From: Clostridioides difficile ATCC 9689 = DSM 1296
GTDB taxonomy: Bacteria; Bacillota; Clostridia; Peptostreptococcales; Peptostreptococcaceae
DNA length: 64,000 nt
Reading direction: 5' to 3'
NCBI RefSeq assembly: GCF_001077535.1
Contig: NZ_CP011968.1
Coordinates: forward strand, 3,224,001-3,288,000
Numbering within the stretch: position 1 is the first letter of the stretch; every line of letters begins with the position of its first letter. Positions 38,902-47,474 of this stretch are shown here, piece by piece. The notes below the pieces were generated by a model, which was not told the origin of the DNA, searched no databases, and saw only the letters and a program-made list of their open reading frames with translations. A program made the translations under genes and the position numbers.

Positions 38902-39058
38902 ATTTAGATATGATTTAGTTAATATAAGGTGGATGTTTTAGTATATGCTATTGTTGATTCTACAATTTTATATACTGCTTTATTAATATAAAATAAGTTT
39001 CTAAATACTCGTTGATATTGCTAATATTCTACTTATCTACCCTTAGTTGATATAAAAC
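38902..39058 (-). repeat. Decayed leader-distal end of the CRISPR array (three degenerate repeats)
   Basis: Three degenerate copies of the CRISPR repeat continue the array: 38902-38930 (22 of 29 bases match), 38966-38994 (22 of 29) and 39031-39058 (24 of 29 with one deleted base). The intervals between them and to the first intact repeat are 35, 36 and 37 bases, the same as true spacers here. Mutated repeats are expected at the oldest, leader-distal end. Confidence 0.85.
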
Positions 39059-39095: not shown

Positions 39096-39644
39096 ATTTA
39101 CATACCACTTAGTTAATATAAAACGTTGTTAGATAAATCATATGCTTTAGTTGCTTTAGATTTACATACCACTTAGTTAATATAAAACACTTCGAAATTG
39201 CAGTTTTCAGCATGTTATTGCGCAATTTACATACCACTTAGTTAATATAAAACAAATTCGAGGTCTTGATTTTGAAGTTTTTGGTTATGCATTTACATAC
39301 CACTTAGTTAATATAAAACGGTTTCTACCAATCAAATCACGCATAATTATAGAATTTACATACCACTTAGTTAATATAAAACAATCATTTTGTATGATTG
39401 TTCCATTTTTTTTGAAAACATTTACATACCACTTAGTTAATATAAAACCTCTGTGACTCCATATTTTTTTGCAATATATAATTCATTTACATACCACTTA
39501 GTTAATATAAAACCATTTGTAAATCTTTATGATTATGTAATATATTCATAATTTACATACCACTTAGTTAATATAAAACTTTTTGAATGTTGAAGATTTT
39601 GTTAATGCAGGGAAAATTTACATACCACTTAGTTAATATAAAAC
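39096..39644 (-). CRISPR. Type I-B CRISPR array, nine intact repeats and eight spacers
   Basis: A 29-bp repeat (plus strand begins ATTTACATACCAC and ends TTAATATAAAAC) occurs identically at 39096, 39160, 39225, 39291, 39354, 39420, 39485, 39551 and 39616. The eight spacers are 34-37 bp. The repeat is the C. difficile I-B type, whose transcript form starts GTTTTATATTAAC, so the array reads on the minus strand, in line with the cas operon. The leader lies at 39645-39827, and degenerate repeats lie at the far end. No spacer target could be found within this window. Confidence 0.97.
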
Positions 39645-39827: not shown

Positions 39828-40094
39828 CTATATAAACATTTCATCAGAATACTTATCAATCCCATAACATTTCTTTTTAATTGAATTAGGATTTTTTATC
39901 TCATAAACATAGATTGAATCCTCGCTATTATCAATAATATTTTCTATTTCAGAAATACATTTATGTAACTTTCCTTCAGTAATATTGCCTTCAAAAACAG
40001 AATTTTGCGTCCAAGTCAAATATTTTCTAAGTATCCTTCTAATTCTATTTAACGACCTTGCTTCAACAATATCATAAGTAACAATAACAAACAT
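39828..40094 (-). CDS. cas2: CRISPR-associated Cas2
   Basis: Structural partner of Cas1 in spacer capture, 88 aa, with a ferredoxin-like fold: FVIVTYDI (strand 1, conserved Asp) and TWTQNSVFEGNITEGKL. I set the start at 40094, two nt after the cas1 stop; the longer frame from a GTG at 40106 overlaps cas1 and adds only MVVS. The last gene of the cas operon; the leader begins at its stop codon. Confidence 0.95.
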   Translation of the reverse strand: MFVIVTYDIVEARSLNRIRRILRKYLTWTQNSVFEGNITEGKLHKCISEIENIIDNSEDSIYVYEIKNPNSIKKKCYGIDKYSDEMFI

Positions 40095-40096
40095 AC

Positions 40097-41077
40097 TTAC
40101 CACCACACCTTTAAAACTTTGTACCTTTCATCATTTATAAAATGTTTAATTAATTTATAACACTCTAACCTTATAAACATTCTATATGAAACTTTTCTAT
40201 TTAGATTTCTATGTTTTATAGTTGTCTGCATCTTATTTTCAAATTCTTGCAAAAATTTCTTCTTTCCTTTTTCACTTAAATAACAAATTTTGTCTTGATA
40301 TTCAAAATCATTCTTATTAATTCTTTTATTATTAATCAGGCTAAAAATTATTGTGTCAACTATAATTGGCTTAAAAATTTCTGCAATATCTAAACTTAAA
40401 GAAAATCTCTTTGTTGATGGTTCATGTAAAAAGCTTATTGTAGGGTCAAGTTGTGTCTTATATATCTCACTTAAAACATTCGTATACATTATGCTATTTC
40501 CAAAAGACATAAGAGCATTTACTGGGTCTTTGGGAGGTCTTTTTTCTCTTTTATAAAATTCAAAATCATCTTTTAATATTTGATTAAATGATTTATAGTA
40601 TGTTTTTCTTATTCTGCCTTCTTTACCCATAAGTTCTGATATTTCTTTGACATCATTCAAATCATTTAGTTCATCCTTTATAGTATCAATTAAACTTTCA
40701 TCAACTTTGTAATATCTCATATTTCTTAAAATATGGTATGATGCACTTTCCACAAAGGATTTTGCTAAGTATAATCTTTCATTTTTATCTAAATAGCAGG
40801 CTGATTGACATACTAAACTGAATCCTGATACATTTTTCTTCCTTGGATAATATGTACCTGAATAATATCCATAGTAATTGTAGAAATGAAGCATCACCCC
40901 ATATTTACTTATGTAATTTATAAGTTTTGTGTTTAAATCTACTTCTCCATATATATGAATATCATCAACTTGTTCTACTGGTAATATTTTTTTCTCACCT
41001 TCTAAATTGTAATAGTAAATCGTATTTTCTTTCCTTTTTATATCCCCATTACTTATAATATAATAGTCTTTATACAT
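40097..41077 (-). CDS. cas1: CRISPR-associated integrase Cas1
   Basis: Metal-dependent integrase of 326 aa that inserts new spacers. Catalytic regions are GKEGRIRKTYY (Glu), SFLHEPSTKRFSLSLDIAEIFKP (His and Asp), both intact. The start at 41077 follows AAGGAGGAG. In the undamaged reading of cas4 the two genes would be only 2 nt apart, but the amber codon in cas4 leaves an 83-nt untranslated stretch before cas1. Confidence 0.96.
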   Translation of the reverse strand: MYKDYYIISNGDIKRKENTIYYYNLEGEKKILPVEQVDDIHIYGEVDLNTKLINYISKYGVMLHFYNYYGYYSGTYYPRKKNVSGFSLVCQSACYLDKNERLYLAKSFVESASYHILRNMRYYKVDESLIDTIKDELNDLNDVKEISELMGKEGRIRKTYYKSFNQILKDDFEFYKREKRPPKDPVNALMSFGNSIMYTNVLSEIYKTQLDPTISFLHEPSTKRFSLSLDIAEIFKPIIVDTIIFSLINNKRINKNDFEYQDKICYLSEKGKKKFLQEFENKMQTTIKHRNLNRKVSYRMFIRLECYKLIKHFINDERYKVLKVWW

Positions 41078-41079
41078 TG

Positions 41080-41598
41080 TTACTCCTCCTTCACAAAACA
41101 AAATTCATAATAAGCACATTTTGTACAATAATGTTTTTTCTCAATTTTGGGAGGAGATAACTACATATTTATTTCATTTATATTTATAAGTGTGTTTTCA
41201 ATAATTCTTTCTTTTTCTTCTGTCAATATCAATTCTTCTTGTTTCTTTTCCTTAACATAATTTATAGTTCCTTTTTTCTCTATACCCATACTATTCTTTA
41301 AATAGTATAAGTAATAGTATAACTGCATTTCATCTGCTTCTTTCATCTTTGAACTTATTTTTACTTCTTTTACATACTCATCCTTTATTATATCTAGCTT
41401 CAAGATATCATCAATCAATATTTCTTTATTTTTCATTCTTTTATATGAATCTTCATGTACTATCTTCCCAGACAATACTCTACTACTATTTTGTTCCATG
41501 GTTATTCCTTTAGAAAATAGCCATAGTTTTCTTTTACATACATAATAATAATTTATTTTTACACCTTGAACTTTTAATACTTCTAAATCTATTGGCAC
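41080..41598 (-). pseudogene. cas4: cas4 interrupted by an in-frame amber codon
   Basis: Cas4 is a RecB-like nuclease with a [4Fe-4S] cluster that trims prespacers and helps choose PAMs. From the GTG at 41598 (AAGGTG site) the frame shows the first cluster Cys (YYYVCKRKLWLF), GKIVHE, an Asp and EVK nuclease residues, and QLYYYLYYLK. It then stops at TAG (41161-41163) after 145 residues. In the same frame, immediately after, comes LSPPKIEKKHYCTKCAYYEF and then CFVKEE before TAA at 41080-41082, exactly the missing C-terminal cluster cysteines. Full length would be 172 aa, normal for the family. The product should lack three of four cluster ligands. Confidence 0.85.
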
Positions 41599-41645: not shown

Positions 41646-43967
41646 TCAAATAAATTGGTCTATTTCATTACTTATAAGCACACCTTTACCAAATATCTGT
41701 TTTGTGTGCTTATTTTCGTGTATATCATATTTATATAAAAGTATTTTTAAATCTTCAAGACCTTTCACCTGTATGTCAATTACATTTTGTTTAGCTTTAT
41801 ATATTGGTAAATTTACAGTTTTTTTAATTATCTCTCTTCTTGCTTTTTTTCTCTTAGACTTTATTTTATTTATCAATTGTCTATCATCATTACTATATGC
41901 ATTTATAAGCTCTTGTCCCAACTCTTCATAATCTTTGATTAAAGTTTCTTCAATTTTATTATATATATCCTCTGGAATTACTGTATATCCTTCAATATTT
42001 CTAAGTATATTTTGTGCATCTTTAGAACCTAAACTATATGGCGTTATAGTATCTAAAATATTTAAAGCACTGGTAAATCTCTTTTCAAAAGCTGTACCTT
42101 CTAGACTTTCTTTAGAGTATAGTATCTTAACCATTTCTACCTTATATTTTTCTTTCATCTTCACACATTCTTTTCCATTTATAAAAGTTTTCAGTAGCTC
42201 AAGTCCTTTTTCTACAATATCCTTATCATAAATACTACCTATTCCTGTAGCTTTTTCTGTATATATAAATATATTTGGGCTATTTTCTTCATACTCACGA
42301 CTTCTATAACATCTACCAAATCGTTGAAATAGACTGTCAAGTGTTGAATTTTCTGTATGAAGCTCATCAAAATCAATATCAAGGGATGCTTCCACTAATT
42401 GTGTAGTAATCCAAATACCATTACTATCACTATCTGCAAATTCTTTTATATATTTTTCTAATTTTGCTCTATCTTCTTGTATATACATAGAATGTAAAAG
42501 ATTTAAGTTGACATCTATTCCTTTTGGTTTAACTATTTCTTCTATTAACTCATATTTTTCTACAGCACTTTTAACTGTATTTACTATTACAAGAACTTTT
42601 TTATTCATTCCACTTTGTATTATTTTACCTAAGTTTTCATCTATTGAATTTTCTACAATAGACACACAGTGTCTTATTTTTTCTGTGTTACATGTCAAGT
42701 CAGCTAAGTTACTATTCATTACACCTCTTTTTTTTAATTCATCTATATATATGGTTGGCATAGTAGCTGTCATTATCATAAATCTGCCACCTATCTTATG
42801 TATCATTTCTATACCTTTTACCAATACAGCTGCTATTTCTGGTGAATATGCTTGTATCTCATCTATTACTACTTTTGAATATGCTAATGTTGAGTACACT
42901 TTTTCATAGCCTCTATACAAAAAAGGAAATTTAAATATTTGGTCTATTGTGGAAAATGTCAGTTTACAAGATAATAACTTTGCTAAATCTACAATCTCAC
43001 TTGAATTTTCTTGATTACTTTCTTCTAGATAATCTATTGCTGTTGAATGTAACAAACCTAAGAATGTATCATTTGATTCTCCAACTCCAACTATATTTTT
43101 TGCTCTATCAAATAATGCATTTATACTTACTCTTAATGGAAGTGTAAAAAATGCCTTGTCTTTATCTATCCAAATTAAGGCAGTTTCTGTTTTTCCCATT
43201 CCTGTAGATGCAATCAGTATTATATTCTTATTTCTATTAGATTTAGCAAATGATTGAGCCTCTCTCAAACTACCAAACTCTTTCATTAAATAATTTTCTG
43301 TCTGTTCTCCTATATTTATAACATTATTGCATTCCACAACTTCATGAGCAGAAGCACTATGGTCTAGTCTATGTAGTATTCCTTTTAACATAATATATAA
43401 ATTATAGTACTTATGATTTTTATCTATTCTTTTTTCTACACTTTGTAGATATACTTTACTCAATCTTTCTGTTTTTATTGGATATCTAACTTTAAATTCA
43501 TGCTGTAGTTCATAAACTTTATTTATTAAATCTTCATCTAATATTTTTTGTATTAAATTTTTAAAATCTTTATCTATAAAGATATCTCTTTCATGATGAT
43601 ATACAATAACTTGATTTAATACTGCTCTAAGTTCTTTATTTTTTTTCCTGTCTATATAACTATAATCAATAAATGCAGGAGAAAGATAATTATGGCCTAC
43701 ATTATTTTCTAAATGAGTTACTATTTTAGGTTCATTTATTTTAGTATCCATTCTGCTTTTTATTAACTCTTGAAACGGTGAAAATGCCTTTCCAATATCA
43801 TGAAATTCTATAACAAAGTCAAGTAATTGCCAAAATATCTCCTCTTCTAGAAAATCTAAGCTATTTATATTTTTTCCATAACTTTCTCTTAATACATTCA
43901 TTTGTTTTAAAAGTTCATCAGTATGCTCTCTAAGTGTTTCCACTGGATTAGATTTAGCATATAACAT
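41646..43967 (-). CDS. cas3: CRISPR-associated helicase-nuclease Cas3
   Basis: Effector that unwinds and shreds DNA marked by Cascade. The 773-aa protein starts with an HD nuclease domain (His15, FHDIGKAFSPF with His56-Asp57, then GHNYLSPAF and YHHERD). A superfamily 2 helicase follows: STGMGKTETA (motif I), VIDEIQAY (motif II), MTATMP (motif III), TTQLVEASLDIDF and FQRFGRCYR (motif VI). HD and helicase are fused as usual in I-B. It begins 10 nt after cas5. Confidence 0.96.
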   Translation of the reverse strand: MLYAKSNPVETLREHTDELLKQMNVLRESYGKNINSLDFLEEEIFWQLLDFVIEFHDIGKAFSPFQELIKSRMDTKINEPKIVTHLENNVGHNYLSPAFIDYSYIDRKKNKELRAVLNQVIVYHHERDIFIDKDFKNLIQKILDEDLINKVYELQHEFKVRYPIKTERLSKVYLQSVEKRIDKNHKYYNLYIMLKGILHRLDHSASAHEVVECNNVINIGEQTENYLMKEFGSLREAQSFAKSNRNKNIILIASTGMGKTETALIWIDKDKAFFTLPLRVSINALFDRAKNIVGVGESNDTFLGLLHSTAIDYLEESNQENSSEIVDLAKLLSCKLTFSTIDQIFKFPFLYRGYEKVYSTLAYSKVVIDEIQAYSPEIAAVLVKGIEMIHKIGGRFMIMTATMPTIYIDELKKRGVMNSNLADLTCNTEKIRHCVSIVENSIDENLGKIIQSGMNKKVLVIVNTVKSAVEKYELIEEIVKPKGIDVNLNLLHSMYIQEDRAKLEKYIKEFADSDSNGIWITTQLVEASLDIDFDELHTENSTLDSLFQRFGRCYRSREYEENSPNIFIYTEKATGIGSIYDKDIVEKGLELLKTFINGKECVKMKEKYKVEMVKILYSKESLEGTAFEKRFTSALNILDTITPYSLGSKDAQNILRNIEGYTVIPEDIYNKIEETLIKDYEELGQELINAYSNDDRQLINKIKSKRKKARREIIKKTVNLPIYKAKQNVIDIQVKGLEDLKILLYKYDIHENKHTKQIFGKGVLISNEIDQFI

Positions 43968-43977
43968 ACTCTCCCTC

Positions 43978-44679
43978 CTAATTTATATTATTAAAATATA
44001 ATAAATCTCCTTCATTATCTAATAATATATCTCCAATTGATATAGTATTTCCATCCTCAACATAATAACTATCTACCTTATTCCAAACCCTTTTTTTATC
44101 TTCCACAGCATTATTATCATAGTAATTATTGAGCCTATAACTTATACCATCTATATCTGTATCTTGTAAACTTGTTTTTGGTATATATATAGGCATTCTT
44201 ATATTACATTCTGATAACTTATAATTTTCATAATCATCTAATTGTATATCCTCATCTACTTCAAATTTATTGACTTCTACAAATCTAATATCATTAATTC
44301 TTACTAAATCTTCTTTTCTACCTAATGATAAATGCTCGTCATAATTTAATAAACTATCATATATTTCTTCCAATAAATCAAAATCCCCACCTATATGAAT
44401 TATCAAATTTACATTCAATAGCATATGACTATTCATTGGCATAGATGTAATACTATCTTTTTTATAAAAATACGTTGTCTGGTAATTATTAAATATACTT
44501 TCATATGTTCCCTGTACACTTATATTAAACGGTATATATTCTGTAGCATTTAATACTTTGTGAATTAATCCATTTATTGTAGAATATGGAGGCAGTGGAT
44601 ATGTCTCTGTAATCTTCATAGCAAATGGTTTTTTATAGCATGCAGTTTCTTGAAATAAATCTAATTTCAAAACCTTCAT
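43978..44679 (-). CDS. cas5: Type I-B Cascade subunit Cas5
   Basis: RAMP protein of 233 aa that would cap the 5' handle of the crRNA. MKVLKLDLFQETACYKKPFA and TYPLPPYSTINGLIHKVL form the RNA-recognition fold start of Cas5b. It follows cas7 by one nt and precedes cas3. Confidence 0.9.
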   Translation of the reverse strand: MKVLKLDLFQETACYKKPFAMKITETYPLPPYSTINGLIHKVLNATEYIPFNISVQGTYESIFNNYQTTYFYKKDSITSMPMNSHMLLNVNLIIHIGGDFDLLEEIYDSLLNYDEHLSLGRKEDLVRINDIRFVEVNKFEVDEDIQLDDYENYKLSECNIRMPIYIPKTSLQDTDIDGISYRLNNYYDNNAVEDKKRVWNKVDSYYVEDGNTISIGDILLDNEGDLLYFNNIN

Positions 44680-44680
44680 A

Positions 44681-45595
44681 TTAATTCACCCCATAATATT
44701 CCTTTACTTCTTTAACTAGTTGTCCAAAAAATTTATCTACACTTAAAAAATTATCTTCAAACAATCCCTTAAATTCTTCTTTATTTATAAATACCCCATC
44801 TACCATTCCAACATAGGTAAATTCTTTTAAATCTTTTCCTAAAAAAGTACCTTGAATTACTTCTTCTATAGCTTGCTTATTTATTTTAAATCCATTTTTA
44901 TCTCCTTTTAATTTAATTCTACCCAAGAAAAATGGATTTGCTATTTCATATACTCCTCCTACTACAAATAGAGGAGATAAGTTTTCTTGTCTACCTCTAA
45001 TATTTCTATTCAATACTTTTATTATTTCTAAAAATTCTACTACTCTTCTACATTTCTCTTTATTATCAAGTTCTATATCTCCATCCTTACCTATTTTAGA
45101 TAAATCTATAGTAACCGTATATGTATAGTAACTTAAATGTTGCTCTATGTTGGCAAGATTAGGGTGTTCTCCTATTCTATCTGCAAATCCTTTATTATTT
45201 AAAAAATCCATATCACTTCTATATGGCTCAAGAGAAATCGCATTACTTAATCTTACAGTAGCTTCTCTAGTCAAAGAACCTCCTTTTTTATCTTTCTCAT
45301 CTTTTTTATTTGTTTTCATATATCCAAATAAATCCATTTCTTCTGATTCTCTTATACTTATATTATCTTTAAATTGAATAGTACCTTTTTCTTTATCGAC
45401 AACCTGTAAATTCCAATTAAACAATTCTGCTGCTAATCGTACTATGTCATATCTTAAACACTGGCGAGATGCAAATGTATACATATTTCCATCAGCTCTA
45501 CTTAATTTTTTTAATTCTGATATATTGCCTATCCCTTCACCATAGTTTAAACTTTGAGCCTGTGCTATTACTGTAAATGTTAATCCTCTTTTCAT
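44681..45595 (-). CDS. cas7: Type I-B Cascade backbone subunit Cas7
   Basis: Backbone RAMP of 304 aa that lines the crRNA. LTFTVIAQAQSLNYGEGIGN, DGNMYTFASRQCLRYD and LTREATVRLSNAISLEPYRS are DevR/Cst2-type signatures (I-B Tneap subgroup). The start at 45595 follows AAGGAGG inside the end of cas8; the longer frame to 45640 overlaps cas8. Only one nucleotide separates the cas8 stop and this start. Confidence 0.93.
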   Translation of the reverse strand: MKRGLTFTVIAQAQSLNYGEGIGNISELKKLSRADGNMYTFASRQCLRYDIVRLAAELFNWNLQVVDKEKGTIQFKDNISIRESEEMDLFGYMKTNKKDEKDKKGGSLTREATVRLSNAISLEPYRSDMDFLNNKGFADRIGEHPNLANIEQHLSYYTYTVTIDLSKIGKDGDIELDNKEKCRRVVEFLEIIKVLNRNIRGRQENLSPLFVVGGVYEIANPFFLGRIKLKGDKNGFKINKQAIEEVIQGTFLGKDLKEFTYVGMVDGVFINKEEFKGLFEDNFLSVDKFFGQLVKEVKEYYGVN

Positions 45596-45596
45596 C

Positions 45597-47474
45597 TTAT
45601 TTTTCCTCCTTTTCGTTTGGTAGTTTATCTTTTCCTTCATATTTTCCAGAAATTAATCCAGATATAAAAGCATGACCTATAGATTCAAAGTCTAAATCTT
45701 TTTCAATTTCTATATCTAAAATAAATGCTGGAATCTGTTTTTCAGCTGACATAAAAACTCTTATAATTGTATCCATAAAATCACTTTTATTTCCGACTTT
45801 AACTGAATTTAAAAGTTTATAGCTTACTCCATCTATTTTATTTTTAGAATTTTTATTAACAAAATAGTCATGTATATCACAACCTAAATAATAAATTATT
45901 TTCAGCTTTTCATCATTCTTCTCCAAATTTTTACTATCCATTTTATATACCCCCTTTTTGTAGCTATTTATTAATACTCTTAATTGGACTACTCTAAAAC
46001 AATCTATTCCTGATATATTTGATTTGTTGTTGCTTTCCATATCATTTTTAACTTTATTTCTTAAAATGTTATTAGTTAGATGCTTCAAGTCCCTATTTTT
46101 CAAGAGTAAATCTAGTACATTTGATTTAAGCTTGTAATCATAGATACTTTGTATTTTTTTATTTGCATACTTGTCTGTAAAAAATTTTGCTAAATAAGTT
46201 GGAATATTAAAATAATTTATTTTACATTTTTTAGAATCTATACTTGCTTTAAATTCCACAAAAAGTATATTACGAAGTTGCCATTCACTTTTTAATGTAT
46301 TTTCTTCTACTATACTTTTTATAAGCTGATTAAAAGGATTTTCATCTTTGGAATCTGAAGACTCACTTTTTTGAGCTTTTAAACTATTATTTCTTTCAAA
46401 AAGCTCATTTATAGAAGTATCCATGTTAACAAATAAATAAAACTCATTTTCTTCATTAATTAAATAATTCTTTCTTGTATAAGTAGCCCCTGCTGGAGTA
46501 CAGAACAATATTAGCTTACAAACATCACATATTGATGATACATACTCCTGATTCCAAAACATATTCCTAGCATTATTGGTGCTTACTCCAAGTGGAGCAA
46601 AATTACTTTCTGAGTATTCATCTAATATTCCCTTATATAAACCACACATTTCACATACTTCTAAACTATCCATATACTCTTTTATATCTTCTATGCTTTT
46701 ATTTTTCTTTATAAAGTTTTTATTTATTTCCTTCATAATTTTTTCTATAGTATTTATACTAGACTTACTAACTTTTTTTTCATTTATATCCTTAGCTATA
46801 CTATTTAATCTATCATTTAAATAGTTTTTCAACTTATCATAGTCATTCTCTTCTAATAAATCTTCTAACTCTCCAAAATATATAATTTGTCTTAAATAAT
46901 CATTAAACATTACCTGTTTTAATCCATCTAAATCTAATTTCGCCTTAGCAACATTAAAAAAACTAACTTGTCCAAAATAATTATCTTGAACTACATATTT
47001 ATAAAGATTTGCTGTAAGCCTGTCATTTATTGATTTTATTTTAAATATATCTATAGTCTCATCTACTAAAGATTCTAAACTATCAAATTCATCATAACTT
47101 TTTATCTTAGACATACTATCTAGCTTCTCTTTTATCAGGTTAAATTTTTCTTCATCAAATTTTTTAATCTTATCATTTTGTTGTTTCACACTATCTTTAA
47201 TTTTCTTAATTCCATCTTTGATTCTATCAGGCTTAGATTTAATAAAATTTATACTATAATCAATATTTTTTTTAATTCTTTTTGATACATCATATTCATC
47301 CATAAAGTAATTAAAATAATACTCATGAAAGTTTTCAAGAAATAAGCTATCAAATTCGATATAATCTTCCATAATAAATATTTCAGCTTGTTTATCTGCT
47401 TTCTTTATTATATTTAAAAATCCAACTATACCCATATTAAAAAACCAATCTCCTCTATAAACTCTTAACTTCAT
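45597..47474 (-). CDS. cas8: Type I-B Cascade large subunit Cas8
   Basis: Large Cascade subunit of 625 aa that should recognise the PAM. It is highly charged, with long helices in the first third. A zinc-finger pair, CEMCGLYKG and CDVCKLILFC, lies near its middle, typical of the Cst1/Cas8a1-like I-B group. RGDWFFNMGIVGFLNIIKKA opens the protein. It follows cas6 by 5 nt. Confidence 0.9.
   Translation of the reverse strand: MKLRVYRGDWFFNMGIVGFLNIIKKADKQAEIFIMEDYIEFDSLFLENFHEYYFNYFMDEYDVSKRIKKNIDYSINFIKSKPDRIKDGIKKIKDSVKQQNDKIKKFDEEKFNLIKEKLDSMSKIKSYDEFDSLESLVDETIDIFKIKSINDRLTANLYKYVVQDNYFGQVSFFNVAKAKLDLDGLKQVMFNDYLRQIIYFGELEDLLEENDYDKLKNYLNDRLNSIAKDINEKKVSKSSINTIEKIMKEINKNFIKKNKSIEDIKEYMDSLEVCEMCGLYKGILDEYSESNFAPLGVSTNNARNMFWNQEYVSSICDVCKLILFCTPAGATYTRKNYLINEENEFYLFVNMDTSINELFERNNSLKAQKSESSDSKDENPFNQLIKSIVEENTLKSEWQLRNILFVEFKASIDSKKCKINYFNIPTYLAKFFTDKYANKKIQSIYDYKLKSNVLDLLLKNRDLKHLTNNILRNKVKNDMESNNKSNISGIDCFRVVQLRVLINSYKKGVYKMDSKNLEKNDEKLKIIYYLGCDIHDYFVNKNSKNKIDGVSYKLLNSVKVGNKSDFMDTIIRVFMSAEKQIPAFILDIEIEKDLDFESIGHAFISGLISGKYEGKDKLPNEKEEK

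What the first reader, a model, noticed from the sequence alone, without database searches (positions are those of the whole stretch)
41080..41598. Amber codon removes the iron-sulfur cysteines of Cas4
The cas4 frame stops at TAG (41161-41163), yet the same frame then encodes the entire C-terminal cluster region (YCTKC, then YYEFC) and ends 2 nt before cas1. One base change explains it. Truncated Cas4 keeps the nuclease motifs but only one of four cluster cysteines. Since Cas4 trims prespacers and enforces PAM and orientation, Cas1-Cas2 might now add spacers poorly or with wrong PAMs, in line with a small array with a decaying end. Amber suppression or read-through would rescue it.
Basis: seen in the sequence. 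Interest (0 to 1): 0.75.

Follow-up and report, generated by a model that had tools for sequence, protein, structure and literature searches.

The report
Nonsense mutation in CRISPR gene cas4
In this Clostridioides difficile strain a single stop codon cuts the last sixth off Cas4, a helper that trims DNA for CRISPR memory, so the cell probably stores new phage memories badly while old memories still work; it looks like an ordinary broken gene rather than a new mechanism.

Summary
On the minus strand the cas4 frame (41598-41080) meets TAG at 41161-41163, codon 146 of 172. The same frame continues with the three C-terminal cluster cysteines and ends 2 nt before cas1. The searches found one cas4 and one cas1 in the genome. 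In 6 of 6 sister-species copies of this operon the frame is open there, so the stop is derived. The 26-codon tail has no indel and few changes, so the mutation looks recent. Best reading: a plain nonsense mutation. The product keeps the nuclease residues, loses three of four Fe-S cysteines and is probably unstable or inactive; interference should be unaffected. Read-through is poorly supported: no sister has the stop, PylS is below cut-off, and ARAGORN's four 'tRNA-Pyl' are mis-registered tRNA-Arg(UCU). The decaying array end is the leader-distal one and says nothing about Cas4. Among 13 spacers matched to fetched phage or plasmid protospacers, 10 have a 5' CCN PAM, including the first spacer of one array. 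Whether other C. difficile strains share the stop could not be tested.

The parts
41080..41598 (-). cas4 frame from GTG at 41598 to TAA at 41080-41082, 172 codons if the TAG is passed over; the mechanical ORF opens earlier, at TTG 41649
41161..41163 (-). in-frame TAG, codon 146; a sense codon in 6 of 6 sister operons
41164..41598 (-). truncated Cas4, 145 aa, with C21 and H48, D69, E78, K80, Q92, Y96 (17 of 17 in the alignment; catalytic roles recalled from the family)
41083..41160 (-). cas4 remnant behind the stop: 26 codons with C158, C161, C167; its only in-frame ATG/GTG/TTG is a GTG four codons from the end
40097..41077 (-). cas1, open; only Cas1 match in the genome; a GGAGG-type ribosome site lies inside the cas4 remnant
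39828..40094 (-). cas2, open
41646..47474 (-). cas3, cas5, cas7 and cas8b (name cas8b from the published gene order; Pfam match Cas_CXXC_CXXC); no internal stop
39096..39644 (-). CRISPR array: 9 perfect 29-nt repeats, 8 spacers, leader at the cas2 side
38902..39058 (-). three degenerate repeats at the leader-distal end of the same array

Best explanation
A recent point (nonsense) mutation has inactivated the single cas4 of a type I-B CRISPR-Cas operon in this C. difficile strain. Shown: the stop is in frame, derived relative to 6 of 6 sister operons, and removes three of four Fe-S cluster cysteines. Inferred: the 145-aa product cannot hold its cluster and is unstable or inactive, so Cas1-Cas2, if expressed, would acquire few spacers or spacers with wrong PAMs and orientation. 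Interference with spacers already stored is expected to be unaffected. Ending translation about 83 nt before cas1 may also lower Cas1 output by weakening translational coupling (inference).
For: (stop and intact continuation). (6 of 6 sister operons open; tail with 0 indels, 1-4 synonymous and 1-3 nonsynonymous codon changes per sister, against 13-21 and 3-8 in the 145 codons before the stop). (C158, C161, C167 in 16 of 16 untruncated relatives). (no second cas4 or cas1). Literature, passages seen: alanine at any one of the four cysteines of Sso0001 gave insoluble protein, 'data not shown' there (PMC3466216); in vivo, cas4 deletion lowered adaptation or gave spacers from sites without a correct PAM in other systems (PMC6519985 introduction); in C. 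difficile 630 Derm induced Cas1-Cas2 without Cas4 gave no growth, while Cas1-2-4 gave growth and spacers with CCN PAM (PMC8406132).
Against: No reads were seen, so an assembly error is not excluded. No second C. difficile chromosome was available to confirm the stop. No functional data exist for this strain. The conserved tail is also what an intact gene behind a sequencing error would give. Existing spacers look normal (10 of 13 CCN), so no adaptation defect is visible yet. The AlphaFold model of a sister Cas4 had low confidence (mean pLDDT 63.9; residues 160-172 under 50), so the structural effect was not modelled.
Confidence: 0.84

Rival explanations
1. Assembly or sequencing error: the strain has an intact cas4.
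For: The frame behind the stop looks conserved, and no reads were available.
Against: The genome is near complete (99.98%, 2 contigs). A substitution is less typical of long-read error than an indel (general knowledge; the sequencing method of this genome is not known to me). The six other cas genes tested carry no stop.
Confidence: 0.08
2. The TAG is read through or suppressed, so full-length Cas4 is still made at low level.
For: The frame is otherwise intact and the tail conserved. ARAGORN reports four tRNAs with anticodon CTA.
Against: All four have the anticodon loop CTTCTAA; the Rfam alignment of one of them centres the loop on TCT, i.e. tRNA-Arg(UCU), and the CTA register needs a C-C mismatch in the stem. 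PylS matches reach 27.5 and 20.6 bits against a cut-off of 178.15. No sister has a stop there. Caveat: the tRNA search scored 150 of 375 candidates, so an odd tRNA could be missed.
Confidence: 0.04
3. The truncated Cas4 is a stable partner that still guides Cas1-Cas2 without an Fe-S cluster.
For: The nuclease residues are retained, and most matched spacers have normal PAMs.
Against: Single cysteine replacements made Sso0001 insoluble. The cysteines are kept in 16 of 16 untruncated relatives. The spacers may predate the mutation.
Confidence: 0.04

Closest known systems
Cas4 of C. difficile type I-B (strain 630 Derm, PMC8406132, passages seen)
   Same: Same gene order cas4-cas1-cas2; the published clone end (+1773 from the cas4 start) fits the 1771 nt from GTG 41598 to the end of cas2 here; same CCN PAM preference in most matched spacers.
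   Different: 630's cas4, overexpressed with cas1-cas2, supported growth and acquisition; here the frame is cut at codon 146. The 630 sequence itself was not seen.
Sso0001, archaeal Cas4 with a 4Fe-4S cluster (PMC3466216, passages seen)
   Same: One N-terminal and three C-terminal cysteines plus a RecB-like nuclease core.
   Different: The window's product lacks the three C-terminal cysteines.
Cas4 of the type I-C Cas4-Cas1-Cas2 complex (PDB 8d3l)
   Same: Only PDB hit of the family profile at E <= 0.1 (E 0.012) and top Foldseek hit of the sister model (E 0.013); the C-terminal cysteines align.
   Different: Remote similarity, another subtype; a single-sequence PDB search with the window frame found nothing at E <= 0.01.

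Membership tests
Cas4 (PF01930) | profile match over the curated cut-off | tested here: met
   147.1 bits truncated, 187.7 bits with the stop read as X, cut-off 22.7
Cas4 (PF01930) | RecB-type catalytic residues H, D, E-x-K, Q-x3-Y (recalled) | tested here: met
   H48, D69, E78, K80, Q92, Y96 in 17 of 17 sequences
Cas4 (PF01930) | four cysteines for an Fe-S cluster in the translated product | tested here: not met
   only C21 lies before the stop
Cas4 (PF01930) | prespacer trimming with Cas1-Cas2 | not testable with these tools
   needs biochemistry
Type I-B CRISPR-Cas | cas8b-cas7-cas5-cas3-cas4-cas1-cas2 order beside an array | tested here: met
   subtype name from the order in PMC6079278, cas6 not tested
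Programmed read-through or pyrrolysine decoding | conserved stop, or suppressor tRNA and PylS | tested here: not met
   stop in 0 of 6 sisters; the 4 CTA calls among 89 tRNAs are mis-registered; PylS below cut-off
Pseudogene by nonsense mutation | intact relatives at the same locus and one disabling change | tested here: met
   raw reads not seen

The most novel reading that the evidence does not exclude
The stop is fixed in a C. difficile lineage and works as a 'memory freeze': the cluster-less Cas4 still binds Cas1-Cas2 and blocks integration of unprocessed DNA, preventing the toxicity seen with Cas1-Cas2 alone, while new spacer uptake is off and interference stays on.
Probability: 0.04. Interest if true: 0.55.

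Novelty: new member of a known kind. Interest (0 to 1): 0.2.

Why it matters
If the stop is real, this strain is a natural cas4 mutant in which the other adaptation and interference genes tested are open. It would be a convenient comparison for what Cas4 does in bacterial type I-B adaptation. It also warns against assuming that a 'complete' cas operon called by annotation can acquire spacers. The finding itself is most likely an ordinary loss of function.

Tried and rejected
Second cas4 or cas1 copy: none listed. Plasmid-, phage- or virus-borne copies of this cas4: no blastn match in plasmids or phages; in viral contigs 10 stretches matched a peptide pattern and none encodes a relative. Split-gene rescue by reinitiation: rejected, the only in-frame ATG/GTG/TTG after the stop is four codons from the end. 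Amber suppression: rejected (see rivals). First spacers of four arrays in IMG/VR: four exact 25-mer scans, 0 hits each. Structure: the sister Cas4 model had low confidence with no regular structure after residue 145, so it was not used as evidence; Foldseek against PDB put Cas4 chains on top but none at E <= 0.001; the second prediction job was not used. Strain identity: the genome's second contig (45,187 bases) has the length of NZ_CP020425.2 of strain FDAARGOS_267 and is identical to it over 14,322 overlapping bases of the two 19-kb stretches compared, but starts at another point; so this is that strain, another assembly of it, or a very close one; not settled further. Kieper 2018 (PMC5896167) and Lemak 2013 (PMC3889865) are not held. 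No report of a cas4 stop in C. difficile appeared in the searches (titles and abstract starts seen; passages only for PMC8406132, PMC6079278, PMC10806358, PMC10778935, PMC11316560, PMC8447795 and PMC6807378); most subscription papers are not in that library.

Full report
What is there. The window carries a cas operon on the minus strand: cas8b, cas7, cas5, cas3, cas4, cas1, cas2, followed by a CRISPR array. This is the gene order given for C. difficile type I-B in PMC6079278 (passage). The mechanical ORF opens at TTG 41649; the likely cas4 start is GTG at 41598, 17 codons further in. The published clone of cas4-cas1-cas2 of strain 630 ends at +1773 from its cas4 start (PMC8406132), and GTG 41598 to the end of cas2 here is 1771 nt. 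The frame is stopped by TAG at 41161-41163, codon 146, and continues for 26 codons, holding YCTKC and YYEFC, to TAA at 41080-41082; cas1 starts with ATG at 41077.

It is not chance. Pfam Cas_Cas4 covers profile positions 1-135 of 160 before the stop (147.1 bits) and 1-159 with the stop read as X (187.7 bits). The whole-genome search scored this place independently with one TAG inside and listed no other Cas4; Cas1 is single too. A second, weaker Cas7/DevR match at 2.688 Mb (20.8 bits, under the cut-off of 23.8) may be the partial cas set that C. difficile strains are reported to carry without an adaptation module (PMC6079278).

The stop is derived. Eight genomes of the genus were searched (own included); 8 of 8 have a Cas4 match and only the own one has a stop in it. 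One of the seven others (G006) has only a distant Cas4 (39% identity). The other six carry the same operon: 6 of 6 have a sense codon at position 146 and no stop in the aligned parts of cas4, cas1, cas2, cas3, cas5, cas7 and cas8. Twelve relatives from outside the genus (L013-L024) run without a stop to the C-terminal cysteines as well; L025 matched only query residues 6-79 and was left out of the alignment. The three C-terminal cysteines are present in 16 of 16 untruncated sequences of the alignment.

Age. Against each sister the 26-codon tail has no indel, 1-4 synonymous and 1-3 nonsynonymous codon changes; the 145 codons before the stop have 13-21 and 3-8. The tail shows no clear decay, which fits a recent mutation; it is too short to date. 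The sisters differ by about 10% in DNA over the operon (89-91% identity), so they cannot resolve events inside C. difficile. No other C. difficile chromosome was available.

Effect on the protein. The product keeps H48, D69, E78, K80, Q92 and Y96 and one cysteine, C21 (catalytic roles recalled). In Sso0001 each single cysteine-to-alanine change gave insoluble protein ('data not shown' there; PMC3466216, passage). Loss of three cysteines and 27 residues is therefore expected to destroy or destabilise Cas4; this is inference. The C-terminal cysteines align with those of the Cas4 chain of the type I-C Cas4-Cas1-Cas2 complex 8d3l, the only PDB hit of the family profile at E <= 0.1 (E 0.012).

Effect on adaptation. 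Reported elsewhere: cas4 deletion lowers adaptation efficiency or gives spacers from sites without a correct PAM (PMC6519985 introduction). In C. difficile 630 Derm no natural acquisition was seen in the laboratory, Cas1-Cas2 overexpression without Cas4 gave no growth, and Cas1-2-4 gave spacers mostly with CCN PAM, except those taken from the chromosome (PMC8406132, passages). By analogy this strain should be a poor or erratic adapter with normal interference, and the loss would go unnoticed in laboratory culture. The cas1 ribosome site lies within the cas4 remnant, so early termination about 83 nt upstream may also reduce coupled cas1 translation (inference).

From nine regions 51 spacers of 25-50 nt were extracted, and two more of one array were added later. 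Four arrays were searched against phages and plasmids: 45 of these 53 spacers, one of them (the last of the 1.534-Mb array) only in part. Only some of the hits were fetched, and 14 plasmid records were not listed. With at most 4 mismatches, 13 spacers matched a fetched protospacer. Ten have CCN directly 5' of the protospacer in spacer orientation: L067_1, _5, _11; L069_5, _9, _14; L068_5, _7; W_4, _8 (number = position from the leader). Three do not: L067_3 (CTA), L067_9 (CTA in three targets, GTA in one), L069_7 (GCA in both targets). One weaker match (L069_6, 7 mismatches, CAG) was dropped, as were the chance-level matches with 10 or more mismatches. CCN background in these stretches is 2.2%; for 7 of 10, the count before the last three were added, the binomial chance is 2.6e-10; it was not recomputed for 10 of 13. 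Spacer 1 of the 1.534-Mb array has CCA, with 2 mismatches to a C. difficile plasmid. The exceptions sit at positions 3, 7 and 9. So there is no sign of PAM-blind acquisition, but all of these spacers may predate the mutation, and only two matched spacers lie in positions 1-3 (one CCN, one not). In the window's own array, spacers 1-3 had no fetched match.

The array argument. The array beside cas2 has nine perfect repeats; three degenerate repeats are at the end far from the leader. Old ends commonly decay (general knowledge), and further arrays exist elsewhere in the genome. This does not bear on Cas4.

Read-through. All 89 tRNA matches lie in the stretches rescanned, where ARAGORN found 89 genes and named four of them tRNA-Pyl(cta). 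Their loop is CTTCTAA in every case; the Rfam alignment, made for one of them, places a 7-base loop centred on TCT, so these are tRNA-Arg(UCU), the CTA register requiring a C-C mismatch in the stem. The search scored 150 of 375 candidates, so an unusual tRNA could be missed. PylS has two matches, both far below its cut-off. After the stop the only in-frame ATG/GTG/TTG is four codons from the end. No sister has the stop. Suppression or recoding is therefore unlikely.

Verdict. A probably real and recent nonsense mutation in a known gene: good observation, ordinary explanation. Interest rests on its value as a natural cas4 mutant and would rise only if the stop proved fixed in a lineage.

Noticed in passing
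L078:1030-1106, L078:2955-3031, L079:4348-4424, L080:9819-9894 (own genome): ARAGORN labels four tRNA-Arg(UCU) genes as tRNA-Pyl(CTA) by shifting the anticodon loop one base; a trap for anyone inferring amber decoding in C. difficile.
   Followed up: yes
G000:C1:1820045-1820078 against the own 45,187-base contig G000:C2 (record NZ_CP020425.2, L108): Spacer 7 of the 1.82-Mb array matches the resident plasmid-like contig with 4 mismatches and GCA instead of a CCN PAM, as if the resident element escapes this spacer.
   Followed up: partly
NZ_CP149754.1, CP103805.1, CP103976.1, PP767789.1: These C. difficile plasmid and phage records match the arrays at many places, probably through CRISPR repeats, so they may carry arrays of their own.
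   Followed up: no
41646-47474: cas3, cas5 and cas8b are 79-92% identical in protein to the sisters, cas1 and cas4 93-97%, suggesting faster change of part of the interference module.
   Followed up: no
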